This document shows positions 18,147 through 21,540 of a stretch of 64,000 nucleotides of DNA, piece by piece. The number at the start of each line of letters is the position of its first letter. Positions within the stretch are counted from its first letter, which is position 1. This DNA comes from Avibacterium sp. 20-132 (lineage in GTDB: Bacteria > Pseudomonadota > Gammaproteobacteria > Enterobacterales > Pasteurellaceae), in assembly GCF_023611925.1 (NCBI RefSeq), contig NZ_CP091456.1, positions 1,461,001 to 1,525,000 on the forward strand, written 5' to 3'. Below the pieces are notes generated by a model. The model was given only the letters and a program-made list of their open reading frames with translations, made no database searches and was not told where the DNA came from. A program made the position numbers and the translations under genes.

Positions 18147-19424
18147 ATGGCAAAGATTGTGGAATCAAAAACGATTGTCGGATTGGAAGTCGGTACTTCT
18201 AAAGTTGTCGCTGTTGTGGGTGAAGTGTTGCCAGACGGCGTAGTAAATATCTTAGGTGTAGGAAGTTGCCCTTCTAAAGGGATTGATAAAGGCAGCATTA
18301 CTGATCTCAATGCAGTGGTGACCTCTATTCAACGTGCGATTGAGGCAGCCGAATCAGTGGCAGATTGCCAGATTATGAGCGTTACTTTAGCAATTACGGG
18401 CGATCACATCCAAAGTCTGAATGAAAGTGGCTTTGTTCCTATTGCCGAAGGAGAAGTTACGCAAGATGAAATTGATTCCGCAATGCACACTGCTAGCTCA
18501 GTGAGAATGGGCGAAGGGCTTTCCTTATTGCACATTATTCCACAAGAATATGCGGTAGATAAGCAGGTAAATATTAAAGATCCCCTTGGTTTACAAGGTG
18601 TACGTTTAAAAGCGCAAGCGCATTTGATTGCTTGTCACCAAGATTGGCAAAACAACCTTAAAAAAGCCGTAGAGCGTTGTAAATTAAAAGTGGATAAAAT
18701 CGTTTATTCAGGCGTTGCATCAGGTTGCTCTGTGTTAACCGAAGATGAGAAAGATCTTGGTGTTTGCTTAATTGATTTTGGTGCAGGCACAATGGATATT
18801 GTCGTTTACACTAATGGGGCATTACGTTTTAGTAAAGTCATTCCTTATGCAGGAAATCGTGTTACCGATGATATTGCTTATGCTTGTGAAACATCAAGAA
18901 CAGAAGCTGAACGGATCAAAGTGAATTATAGCAGTGCGTGGAATCCCCCTTCTTCACACCCAGAAAAACGGATTGAAGTAGCGGGAATTGGCGGACGAGC
19001 GCCACGCGTGCTAACCAAAGAACAATTATCTGTTGCCACCTCAGCGCGTTATGAAGAATTACTCGGCTTAGTTCGCCAAGAATTAAACCAATTGCAGTAT
19101 GAACTTGAAAGCAAACAAATGAAGTTTGAATTAATTGCTGGTGTTGTGATTACCGGTGGGGGCGCACAAATTGAAGATTTAAAACAATGTGCCACTAAAG
19201 TATTTGGAATGCAAGTACGTGTCGGTAGCCCATTAAATATAACTGGGCTAACGGATTATGTAAATAAACCCCAATATTCTACCGTTGTTGGTTTGTTACA
19301 GTATAATCATAATGATGAAGATGAAAGCCCTATTAATGATCAATATGGCTCAGGAGAAAGCTTTTTAGGCGCTGCTTGGGCTGGGGTGAAAAAAATTATG
19401 AATAAAGTGCGGTCTGAATTTTAA
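18147..19424 (+). CDS. ftsA: Cell division protein FtsA
   Basis: Actin-like ATPase that anchors FtsZ filaments to the inner membrane. It is 425 aa (E. coli 420). The N-terminal phosphate-1 motif [17 protein letters not shown], the SHS2/1C region with GDHIQSLN, the phosphate-2 motif [15 protein letters not shown] and the adenosine motif [14 protein letters not shown] are all present. It ends in an amphipathic membrane-targeting helix, [15 protein letters not shown]. The final 22 bases of this gene, up to the first base of the stop, are duplicated at 20125-20146. The next gene is not ftsZ but an ftsZ-like paralogue. Confidence 0.97.
19401..19422 (+). repeat. 22-bp direct repeat, copy 1 (3' end of ftsA)
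   Basis: Encodes the last seven FtsA residues (NKVRSEF) plus the first base of the stop, with an uptake signal core at 19405-19413. An identical 22-base copy lies at 20125-20146, so the two bracket the ftsZ-like gene. Confidence 0.95.
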
Positions 19425-19456
19425 TCAATTTTTATTTAAGCTGAGAGGAAAGAAAA

Positions 19457-20059
19457 GTGGGTGATAAATTATTGATTAGTGTGCTGGGTGTTGGAAGTTA
19501 TGGTACAAAAAAACTCCAGATGATTATGGATAAAATGCAAAAAAATGCTCAAGACGATACGTTCATTAGTTCCCCCCATAGCAATGAGTTTGCTTTTTAT
19601 GCTATAGATAACGATAAAGATGTACTCAATACGAGCAAGGCACAAGATAGCTTGCTGCTAAGTGATGAGTTAAATCAAGAAACATTAGTTGCTCAACAAG
19701 TAGAAGAAAAATTACGCCAAATGGTTGGTAATAGTGATTTGGTTATCTTAGTTTCAGCTGCTGGTGGTAACACATCCTCAATGGTGATTCCTGCGATTGT
19801 AGAGAGTCTTAATGAGATTAAAATCCCATTGGCAGCAGTGGTAGTGAAGCCTTTTGATTTTGAAGGAAGCAAACGTAGTGTAAATGCAGAAATTGCGATC
19901 AGCAAAGTGGAAAAATTAGCTACAACGCTTAAGGTATTAGATAATAATAACTTGATCTCAGTACTAAATCATCAGCCTTTGAATGAGGCATTTGCACAAA
20001 TGGATCGTGAAGCGGTTGAGTTCGTATTGAGTTTTGCTGAAAAACATTTTGTTGCCTAA
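19457..20059 (+). CDS. Divergent truncated FtsZ paralogue between ftsA and ftsZ
   Basis: Intact 200-codon ORF with a GTG start, GAGAGGAAAG eight bases upstream, 32 bases after ftsA. It aligns with the N-terminal half of the FtsZ encoded at 20233. LLISVLGVG (residues 5-13) matches [16 protein letters not shown] (46-53) matches IFYAVNTD, and PLAAVVVKPFDFEG (124-137) matches [13 protein letters not shown]. Key GTPase parts are altered: the T1 GGGGG loop is GSYGT, the T3 GAGANP region is deleted, and T4 GGGTGTG is GGNTSSM (103-109). The protein ends near helix H7 and so lacks the T7 loop NVDFADV, the C-terminal domain and the conserved C-terminal tail. It probably cannot hydrolyse GTP. Lack of any internal stop suggests selection. 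A role capping or regulating FtsZ is inference only; a decaying duplicate is the alternative. Confidence 0.85.
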   Translation: MGDKLLISVLGVGSYGTKKLQMIMDKMQKNAQDDTFISSPHSNEFAFYAIDNDKDVLNTSKAQDSLLLSDELNQETLVAQQVEEKLRQMVGNSDLVILVSAAGGNTSSMVIPAIVESLNEIKIPLAAVVVKPFDFEGSKRSVNAEIAISKVEKLATTLKVLDNNNLISVLNHQPLNEAFAQMDREAVEFVLSFAEKHFVA

Positions 20060-20124
20060 AATAGAGTGCGGTGAAAAATTTACGATTTTTTGGTTTCTTT
20101 TATTATTTTTTTGGAATTTTTATT

Positions 20125-20146
20125 AATAAAGTGCGGTCTGAATTTT
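20125..20146 (+). repeat. 22-bp direct repeat, copy 2 (ftsA-tail remnant before ftsZ)
   Basis: Identical to 19401-19422. Read in frame it gives NKVRSEF followed by TGA (20146-20148), exactly the FtsA C-terminus, but with no ftsA upstream of it. It contains an uptake signal core at 20129-20137 and lies 86 bases before ftsZ. It is best explained as a scar of tandem duplication or ectopic recombination. Confidence 0.93.
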
Positions 20147-20166
20147 GAGAATTTGCATTTTTCATC

Positions 20167-20216
20167 TACAATAAGAGCAATTTAGGTTTTAATTTTGTGC
20201 CAGCAAAACCCTGGCA
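20167..20216 (+). promoter_or_regulatory. Possible ftsZ promoter -10 and leader hairpin
   Basis: TACAAT at 20167-20172 resembles a -10 element, though no good -35 is visible at the right distance. Downstream, TGCCAG (20198-20203) pairs with CTGGCA (20211-20216) to form a small hairpin ending just before the ftsZ RBS (CGGAG). This could tune ftsZ transcription or translation separately from upstream dcw genes. Confidence 0.35.
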
Positions 20217-20232
20217 TTAACGGAGAATAACT

Positions 20233-21540
20233 ATGTTTGAACCAGTGGATTATGATCTTGGTGATATGAACGGCGCACTTATTAAAGTCGTTGGCGTTGG
20301 CGGTGGTGGCGGTAACGCTGTGGATCATATGGTTGCTAATATGATAAAAAACGATATTGGCGGCACATTAGTGGGGGCTGATGAATTAGCTTTCCCAACT
20401 GCAAATGACGAACACGATAGAATTATTTTCTATGCGGTAAATACTGATGCACAAGCCTTGCGTAAAAGCAAAGTACAACAAACCGTTCAAATTGGTGGTT
20501 CAACAACCAAAGGACTGGGAGCAGGTGCTAATCCAAATGTTGGTCGTAAAGCCGCAGAAGATGATCAAGAGGCGATTCGTGCAATGCTTGAAGGGGCGGA
20601 TATGGTATTTATTGCCGCAGGTATGGGCGGTGGTACAGGAACAGGTGCCGCTCCAATTGTTGCGCAAATCGCAAAAGACTTGGGTATCCTTACTGTTGCT
20701 GTAGTAACCAAGCCTTTCGCATTCGAAGGTCCAAAGCGTATGCAATTTGCCGAAATGGGAATTAAAGAGCTTTCTAAACACGTTGATTCTTTGATTATCA
20801 TTCCAAATGAAAAATTATTAAAAGTATTAGGTAAAAACATCAGTTTAGTAAATGCCTTTGCTGCTGCAAATGATATTCTCCGTAATGCAGTAACGGGTAT
20901 TTCCGATATGATTACTTCTCCCGGCTTAATTAACGTGGACTTTGCAGACGTTCGTACCGTAATGTCTGAAATGGGGCGCGCGATGATGGGATCTGGTGTG
21001 GTTGAAGGTGAAGCGGGTGATGGACGTGCAGAGAAAGCTGCACAGGAAGCGGTTGCTAGCCCATTATTGGAAGATGTGGATTTATCTGGGGCAAGAGGCG
21101 TGTTAGTTAATGTCACTGCTGGATTTGATTTAACCTTAGATGAATTTACCATAGTGGGGGATACGATTAAAGCCTTTGCATCAGAAGAGGCAACGGTTGT
21201 GGTAGGAACAACGTTAGTACCAGATATGTCGAATGAAATCCGTGTAACCATTGTCGCAACGGGGATTGGTGATATTGATGCACCAGATATTAAAATTGCA
21301 CCACGTACCGTACCATTAGGTCAGCCAATGCAAAAAGTTAATCAAGAACCATTTGGACAACAGCAAGCAACAGGCTATCAGACGCATAATTCACAAGTGG
21401 GGCAAATGCCAAATCGTCCTGCTGATTTAACACATAGAAATATTTTAGATACGCCAATTACTGATCGTTTAAATTCACTTAAAAGAGAAGAAGGCTTAGT
21501 GAATGCGAACAGTTTTATGCGTAAACCGGAAGATAAATAA
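20233..21540 (+). CDS. ftsZ: Cell division GTPase FtsZ
   Basis: Tubulin-like GTPase that forms the Z ring. At 435 aa it is longer than E. coli FtsZ (383). It has the T1 loop [10 protein letters not shown] (21-30), T3 GAGANPNVG (97-104), the tubulin signature GGGTGTG (132-138) and the catalytic T7 loop NVDFADV (234-240). Between helix H1 and strand S2, roughly residues 40-63, there is an extra acidic segment of about 25 residues absent in E. coli. As I recall, H. influenzae FtsZ also has one here. The C-terminal linker is short and Gln/Asn-rich and ends in [10 protein letters not shown], a divergent form of the FtsA/ZipA-binding tail. Start ATG follows CGGAGAATAACT. Confidence 0.97.

What the first reader, a model, noticed from the sequence alone, without database searches (positions are those of the whole stretch)
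19457..20059. Undescribed FtsZ half-paralogue inserted between ftsA and ftsZ
An intact 200-codon gene in the division cluster encodes a protein alignable to the N-terminal domain of the neighbouring FtsZ (AFYAIDND vs [18 protein letters not shown] vs [10 protein letters not shown]). T1 is degenerate, T3 is deleted, the tubulin signature GGGTGTG is GGNTSSM, and T7, the C-terminal domain and the tail are absent. FtsZ protofilaments assemble head-to-tail, with T7 of one subunit completing the GTPase site of the next. A subunit with only the nucleotide-side half could bind one filament end, cannot activate its neighbour's GTPase, and could cap or poison polymers. Co-transcription with ftsA and ftsZ would fix its ratio. 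The open frame and good RBS argue for retention by selection. I know of no described protein of this form at this locus.
Basis: partly seen in the sequence, partly recalled or inferred. Interest (0 to 1): 0.88.

Follow-up and report, generated by a model that had tools for sequence, protein, structure and literature searches.

The report
Selected half-FtsZ paralogue in Avibacterium
A bacterial genus carries, inside its cell-division gene cluster, a shortened copy of the division protein FtsZ with a degenerate nucleotide site; the copy has been kept intact by natural selection in several species, although how it acts is still unknown.

The parts
19457..20059 (+). N-domain-only FtsZ paralogue (called z2 here), GTG start, 200 aa, ends inside H7
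18147..19424 (+). ftsA (425 aa)
20233..21540 (+). ftsZ (435 aa), full length with FtsZ_C
19401..19422 (+). copy 1 of the 22-bp direct repeat = 3' end of ftsA in use; contains AAAGTGCGGT (uptake-signal core, role recalled)
20125..20146 (+). copy 2 of the repeat = likely fossil of the ancestral ftsA 3' end, upstream of ftsZ; the only other exact copy in the genome
20145..20172 (+). sigma-70-like site TTGAGA-16-TACAAT in front of ftsZ; ATCTACAATA widely conserved in the family
20060..20124 (+). 3' flank of z2, seen in the z2-bearing genomes and, decayed, in G027; not in G026
19443..19448 (+). ribosome-binding-like GAGAGG before the GTG start
   Evidence: sequence read (by eye, no tool score)

Best explanation
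z2 is a genus-specific pseudo-FtsZ. A tandem duplication of [ftsA tail - spacer - ftsZ N-domain] in the ancestor of the genus left an N-domain fragment between ftsA and ftsZ. The fragment quickly lost the GTP-binding loops and then settled under purifying selection. It is probably translated from ftsQA read-through mRNA, while ftsZ keeps its own promoter-like site. Most likely it is a non-essential modulator of division that touches FtsZ (or an FtsZ partner) through surfaces other than the canonical nucleotide-side face. Candidates are the H1 end/S2, S3, H3 and the C-terminal half of H7, which are among the best conserved segments. Shown: existence, predicted fold, genus restriction, repeat scar, selection, loss of GTP-site residues. 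Inferred: the duplication as the cause of the scar, the mRNA source, that it acts on FtsZ, and the surface used.
For: Fold and homology. Derived from a Pasteurellaceae FtsZ: it carries an insertion between H1 and S2 where the 10 Pasteurellaceae FtsZs shown have one and the 8 other FtsZs shown have none; z2 plus 19 Pasteurellaceae FtsZs form one side of a branch against 18 others with support 100/99 (the bootstrap had not settled). Scar: exact 22-bp ftsA-tail repeat at 19401 and 20125, with no other copy in the genome at 0 or 1 mismatch (7 at 2 mismatches). A short ftsA-ftsZ gap of 83-95 bp is found in 30 of 35 other-genus loci examined and in G026 (84 bp). Selection: NG86 dN/dS 0.12-0.21 in all 6 pairs of the 4 intact copies; third-position excess, for example 52/43/107; identical length in all four. 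Genus monophyly 100 in ftsA, lpxC and ftsZ trees of 12 rows. Conserved segments: H1 C-half 9/11, S2 7/8, S3 7/8, H3 10/14, H7 C-half 10/13 invariant, besides the core strands S1 6/7 and S6 5/6.
Against: No interaction, expression or phenotype data exist. Three of 7 genomes have no intact copy (G026, G027, G025), so no essential role. The conservation test rests on 4 sequences, two of them nearly identical, and p 0.035 is nominal. dS is saturated in pairs with G023 (1.4-2.3). Placement next to the genus's own FtsZ is not resolved (AU p 0.43 for z2 with genus FtsZ; long stem). In a quick tree that also held other short FtsZ-like proteins, z2 fell outside the FtsZs, weakly (72) beside the L068 296-aa and L070 284-aa proteins, all on very long branches. 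No complex could be modelled here.
Confidence: 0.5

Rival explanations
1. One reading: z2 binds one filament end by the normal head-to-tail contact of the N-domain top face with T7 of FtsZ and caps or poisons polymers.
For: N-domain fold predicted; T5 KPFxFE and F182 kept in all 4 copies. The C-domain/T7 side of FtsZ is where MciZ and Gp0.4 bind (passages and section read), so proteins that act there do block assembly.
Against: T3 deleted; T1, T4 and T6 altered; Q47 and L178 positions not kept, G023 having E at L178; the top face is less conserved than the rest. H6/T6 is the most variable segment (3 of 16 invariant).
Confidence: 0.15
2. z2 has left division altogether: a stable Rossmann-like fold re-used for another binding role, kept at this locus only because it was born there.
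For: Loss of GTP and polymer features; dispensability; long stem branch of several changes per site.
Against: It sits between ftsA and ftsZ in 5 of 5 genomes that have it.
Confidence: 0.2
3. z2 took over the role of an FtsZ antagonist when MinC was lost in the stem of the genus.
For: MinC_C is missing in 7 of 7 genomes of the genus and present in 5 of 5 nearby outgroup genomes tested; SulA and MinE are missing in all 12, ZapA present in all 12.
Against: MinC_C is present in only 35 of 140 family genomes; of the 105 without it only 5 have z2 (4 intact). G026 and G027 have neither. One coincidence on a tree is no test.
Confidence: 0.1
4. z2 is a decaying relic or an annotation-only ORF.
For: Lost or broken in 3 of 7 genomes of the genus.
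Against: dN/dS 0.12-0.21, constant length, third-position excess, open frame improbable under neutrality.
Confidence: 0.05

Closest known systems
FtsZ (TIGR00065; PF00091 + PF12327)
   Same: Homologous N-domain with the same predicted fold; neighbouring gene
   Different: No T7, C-domain, linker or tail; tubulin signature GGNTSSM in the window copy; half the length; far below the ftsZ equivalog cut-off
Additional FtsZ homologues of Agrobacterium tumefaciens that are not full length
   Same: Extra FtsZ homologues besides one full-length, essential FtsZ; Atu2086 is the only paralogue with linker and C-terminal peptide (passage of PMC13170164 read). That one of them is N-domain only is recalled, not seen in any call.
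   Different: Different bacterial class; sequences and gene position not compared here
FtsZl1 / FtsZl2 families (PMC2875224, passages read)
   Same: FtsZ-superfamily proteins beside a normal FtsZ; FtsZl1 lacks recognisable T6-H7
   Different: Those carry extra C-terminal regions and (FtsZl1) mostly vWA-domain operons; z2 is a Pasteurellaceae FtsZ derivative between ftsA and ftsZ with H7 largely kept
FtsZ inhibitors MciZ, SulA, phage T7 Gp0.4
   Same: Candidate functional analogues: proteins acting on FtsZ assembly; MciZ binds H10/S9 and Gp0.4 mainly the synergy loop and nearby C-domain parts
   Different: Not homologous to FtsZ (recalled); z2 function untested
Short FtsZ-like proteins elsewhere in Pasteurellaceae and Enterobacterales (L067 196 aa, L069 179 aa, L133 188 aa)
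   Same: N-domain only
   Different: Not beside ftsA-ftsZ in the stretches read; L067 beside a PDDEXK_4/PDC-S26 gene and L133 beside a weakly UDG-like gene. L067 and L069 fell apart from z2 in a quick tree (very long branches); L133 was not in that tree

Membership tests
Tubulin/FtsZ superfamily | PF00091 GTPase domain above curated cut-off | tested here: met
   73.6 bits vs 33
Tubulin/FtsZ superfamily | FtsZ-type N-domain fold | tested here: met
FtsZ (cell-division equivalog) | TIGR00065 above cut-off | tested here: not met
   81.5 vs 295.2 bits
FtsZ (cell-division equivalog) | tubulin signature GGGTGTG and intact T1/T3 | tested here: not met
   T4 GG[NQ]T[SA]S, T3 67-74 deleted
FtsZ (cell-division equivalog) | T7 synergy loop, FtsZ_C PF12327, C-terminal peptide | tested here: not met
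   protein ends in H7; no PF12327 hit while the neighbour has 108.2 bits
FtsZ (cell-division equivalog) | GTP-dependent polymerisation | not testable with these tools
   needs protein
FtsZ paralogue derived from a Pasteurellaceae FtsZ | family-type H1-S2 insertion and tree placement with Pasteurellaceae FtsZs | tested here: met
   the quick tree with other short FtsZ-like rows left it unplaced
FtsZ paralogue derived from a Pasteurellaceae FtsZ | sister to the genus's own FtsZ | tested here: inconclusive
   AU p 0.43, long branch
FtsZl1 | vWA-domain operon partner | tested here: not met
   neighbours are ftsA and ftsZ; in Pfam at E<=1 z2 hits PF00091, DUF4073 and Psg1 only, so no Tubulin_2
FtsZ end-capper | sub-stoichiometric block of assembly | not testable with these tools
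   needs purified proteins
   Q47 to D/D/E/Q, L178 to L/S/S/E, T3 lost; loop alignment near 172-180 is uncertain

The most novel reading that the evidence does not exclude
Avibacterium built a dedicated regulator of its Z-ring out of FtsZ itself: a nucleotide-free N-domain pseudo-subunit, born in the division gene cluster, that binds FtsZ by a non-canonical face and replaces the MinC antagonist lost in the same stem lineage.
Probability: 0.15. Interest if true: 0.85.

Novelty: new variant of a known kind. Interest (0 to 1): 0.55.

Why it matters
In the few bacteria with two ftsZ copies the additional copy is described as lying outside the dcw cluster (PMC9871819, passage read; some genomes of another family here do hold two full-length FtsZ genes close together, cluster not examined). 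z2 lies inside the cluster, is only half a subunit, has lost its nucleotide site and is nevertheless under selection. It gives a natural experiment in how an essential polymer-forming protein can spawn a probably non-polymerising relative, and it is a small candidate modulator of FtsZ that can be tested with two purified proteins.

Tried and rejected
Considered and rejected: chance ORF or relic. Phage origin: no relative confirmed in viral contigs; 10 records of the phage collection with weak matches, at most 34.7% identical; no PHROG hit; the structural search of viral proteins gave 9 matches at E up to 0.001, none above TMq 0.72, those with names being FtsZ, tubulin or PhuZ-like apart from one 'uncharacterized' and one 'cell division protein'. 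Defence gene: no PADLOC hit for z2. FtsZ decoy for T7-face inhibitors such as Gp0.4: unlikely, because z2 lacks the synergy loop and C-domain that Gp0.4 binds.

Membership with the other short FtsZ-like proteins is not settled. In one search z2 fell weakly (72) beside the L068 296-aa and L070 284-aa proteins, while L067, L069 and the L070 262-aa protein went together elsewhere (87); all are very long branches. The insertion and the tree without those rows favour separate origin.

The direct repeat as mere uptake signals: the 9-bp core AAGTGCGGT occurs 45 times in the window, but the 22-mer occurs exactly twice in the genome, with none at 1 mismatch and 7 at 2 mismatches.

Weak or null results: promoter and terminator counts do not exceed shuffles (13 vs 12.2; 1 vs 3.4). 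The G027 spacer beats 1000 of 1000 shuffles against z2 plus flank in each of three genomes, but its first 60% alone does not (281, 190 and 445 of 500 shuffles reach it); the signal sits in the last 40% (0, 1 and 5 of 500). So the remnant is probable, not proven. G084, another genus, also has two ftsA-tail-like copies (20 of 24 bases, 0 of 2000 shuffles), but its intervening DNA is not clearly z2 (217, 202 and 9 of 1000), so tail duplication is not unique to this genus. MinC correlation: see rivals. The lpxC dN/dS rows for G023 and G027 covered only 4 codons (wrong start taken) and are not used. The G025 copy was left out of dN/dS. YN00 failed for most distant pairs, so NG86 is quoted.

Literature: searches showed no described N-domain-only FtsZ between ftsA and ftsZ in the listings or passages seen. 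The held library lacks most subscription papers.

Full report
What is there. The window lies in a 2.585-Mb single-contig genome. Two loci are named Avibacterium endocarditidis (L032) and Avibacterium gallinarum NCTC 11188 (L033). Their contig lengths (54432 and 70121) equal those of the G024 and G025 contigs, genomes of the window's genus, so the genus is taken as Avibacterium; the species of the window is not known. Between ftsA (18147-19424) and ftsZ (20233-21540) lies a 200-codon gene at 19457-20059 with a GTG start and a GAGAGG stretch before it. I call it z2.

Where it occurs. Of 140 family genomes, 5 have a close homologue, all in the 7-genome genus of the window: the window itself, G028 76%, G024 74%, G023 63%, and G025 in two frames because of a 1-nt deletion. 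In the 133 genomes outside the genus the best match is at FtsZ level (best E 4.1e-19; the rows listed reach 35% identity; the list was cut at the weak end). G026 and G027 lack it. G026 has an 84-bp ftsA-ftsZ gap; G027 has 286 bp with a probable remnant of the 3' end and flank.

How it arose. In 30 of 35 other-genus loci examined, ftsZ begins 83-95 bp after ftsA. The exceptions are G084 (181 bp) and the four g36 genomes (210-271 bp to the FtsZ match), in none of which a z2-like match was found in the gap. In z2-bearing genomes the ancestral ftsA end survives as a fossil directly upstream of ftsZ, and ftsA uses a second copy upstream of z2. In the window these are exact 22-bp repeats 724 bp apart, the only two copies in the genome at 0 or 1 mismatch. 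This is what a tandem duplication of [ftsA tail - spacer - ftsZ N-domain] would leave; the duplication itself is inferred. z2 carries an insertion between H1 and S2 where the Pasteurellaceae FtsZs shown have one and the other FtsZs shown do not. In a careful tree of 41 rows, z2 plus 19 Pasteurellaceae FtsZs form one side of a branch with support 100/99 (bootstrap not settled). Its exact sister is unresolved (AU p 0.43 for z2 with the genus FtsZ), and a quick tree with other short FtsZ-like rows left z2 on a very long branch outside the FtsZs, weakly beside two of them. The genus is monophyletic with support 100 in ftsA, lpxC and ftsZ trees, so the simplest history is one gain in the genus stem and later loss in G026, G027 and, by a 1-nt deletion, G025. 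Gain and loss by transformation is possible too, since the repeat contains the uptake-signal core (role recalled).

Selection. The four intact copies have exactly 200 codons. NG86 dN/dS is 0.182, 0.209, 0.122, 0.176, 0.165 and 0.146 for the six pairs; dS is saturated for pairs with G023. FtsA in the same six pairs is 0.017-0.048. FtsZ is 0.032-0.062 without G023 and 0.208-0.245 with G023, so z2 is not more relaxed than the odd FtsZ of G023. Substitutions fall mainly at third positions, and neutral simulations rarely keep the frame open (21 and 69 of 2000). z2 diverged fast at first (long stem) and slowly since, the pattern expected of a change of function.

How it may work. If that were so, this face should be the constrained one. 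It is the reverse: 23 of 52 top-face columns are invariant in z2 against 91 of 148 elsewhere (p 0.035), while FtsZ from the same genomes shows no such deficit (49 of 63 vs 99 of 135, p 0.60). The top-face columns were chosen by me from recalled loop positions. In E. coli, Q47K and L178E forms of FtsZ are described as monomeric (PMC13423816, section read). z2 has lost Q47 in 3 of 4 copies and L178 in 3 of 4, with E at L178 in G023. The loop alignment around 172-180 is uncertain and n is 4, so this lowers the capping model without excluding it. The constrained segments, besides core strands, are the H1 end, S2, S3, H3 and the C-terminal half of H7. I therefore favour a modulator that binds FtsZ or a partner by another surface, at about even odds. 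Repurposing away from FtsZ is the main rival.

Expression. z2 begins 32 bp after ftsA. The consensus scan lists no + strand promoter-like site between 17750 and 20079. The promoter-like TTGAGA-16-TACAAT (20145-20172) lies after z2 and before ftsZ. Its ATCTACAATA is present in all 26 other-genus loci, in 5 of 9 loci, and in all 7 genus members. Consensus counts in the region do not exceed shuffles; the argument is conservation, not score.

Context of regulators. MinC_C is missing from 7 of 7 genus genomes and present in 5 of 5 near outgroups, but only 35 of 140 family genomes have it, so the coincidence is weak evidence. SulA and MinE are missing in all 12 genomes tested, ZapA is present in all 12.

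Novelty. Short or odd FtsZ relatives are known in kind: FtsZ homologues of Agrobacterium that are not full length (PMC13170164, passage), and the FtsZl1 and FtsZl2 families (PMC2875224, passages). Additional bacterial ftsZ copies are said to lie outside the dcw cluster (PMC9871819, passage). I saw no description of a half-FtsZ between ftsA and ftsZ in the listings of searches. I file it as a new variant of a known kind.

Noticed in passing
L067:1406-3194 (G049:C103): A 196-aa N-domain-only FtsZ-like protein with intact GGGTGTG overlaps an upstream PDDEXK_4 gene scored as PADLOC PDC-S26; L068 (G115) has a 296-aa FtsZ-like gene beside the same nuclease family: a possible two-gene defence-like pair.
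   Followed up: partly
L133:2699-4032 (G343) and L069:2600-5178 (G066): Further N-domain-only FtsZ-like genes (188 and 179 aa): in L133 overlapping a weakly UDG-like gene (20 bits, cut-off 24.3) near what looks by eye like a recombinase gene, in L069 beside a DUF6892 gene and a weakly HEPN-like gene.
   Followed up: partly
L134:3446-5142 (G007), L070:1453-3113 (G005), L071 (G001): Tandem pair of FtsZ-like genes: 262-272 aa with the Tubulin domain, then 284-286 aa with FtsZ_C (read in G005 and G007); in G001 the first has one TAG inside.
   Followed up: no
L061 and L065, ftsZ: FtsZ of G023 and G027 is only 64-67% identical to that of the rest of the genus (FtsA 85-91%), yet the two are nearly identical to each other at silent sites (dS 0.05 while ftsA dS is 1.04): a fast-evolving FtsZ allele that seems to have moved between species.
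   Followed up: partly
G000, G023-G028: MinC_C absent in 7 of 7 genomes of the genus but present in 5 of 5 nearby outgroups; family-wide 35 of 140 have it. MinE is missing in all 12 genomes tested, so these 5 have MinC without a MinE match.
   Followed up: partly
L014 (G084), ftsA-ftsZ spacer: Independent-looking second copy of the ftsA tail before ftsZ with other DNA in between.
   Followed up: partly
window, 45 places: AAGTGCGGT uptake-signal core occurs 45 times against 0.33 expected, as in naturally transformable Pasteurellaceae (the uptake role is recalled).
   Followed up: no
f3 genomes, e.g. G309:C10, G337:C63: Two FtsZ-like genes of full length close together in several genomes of one other family of the order.
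   Followed up: no
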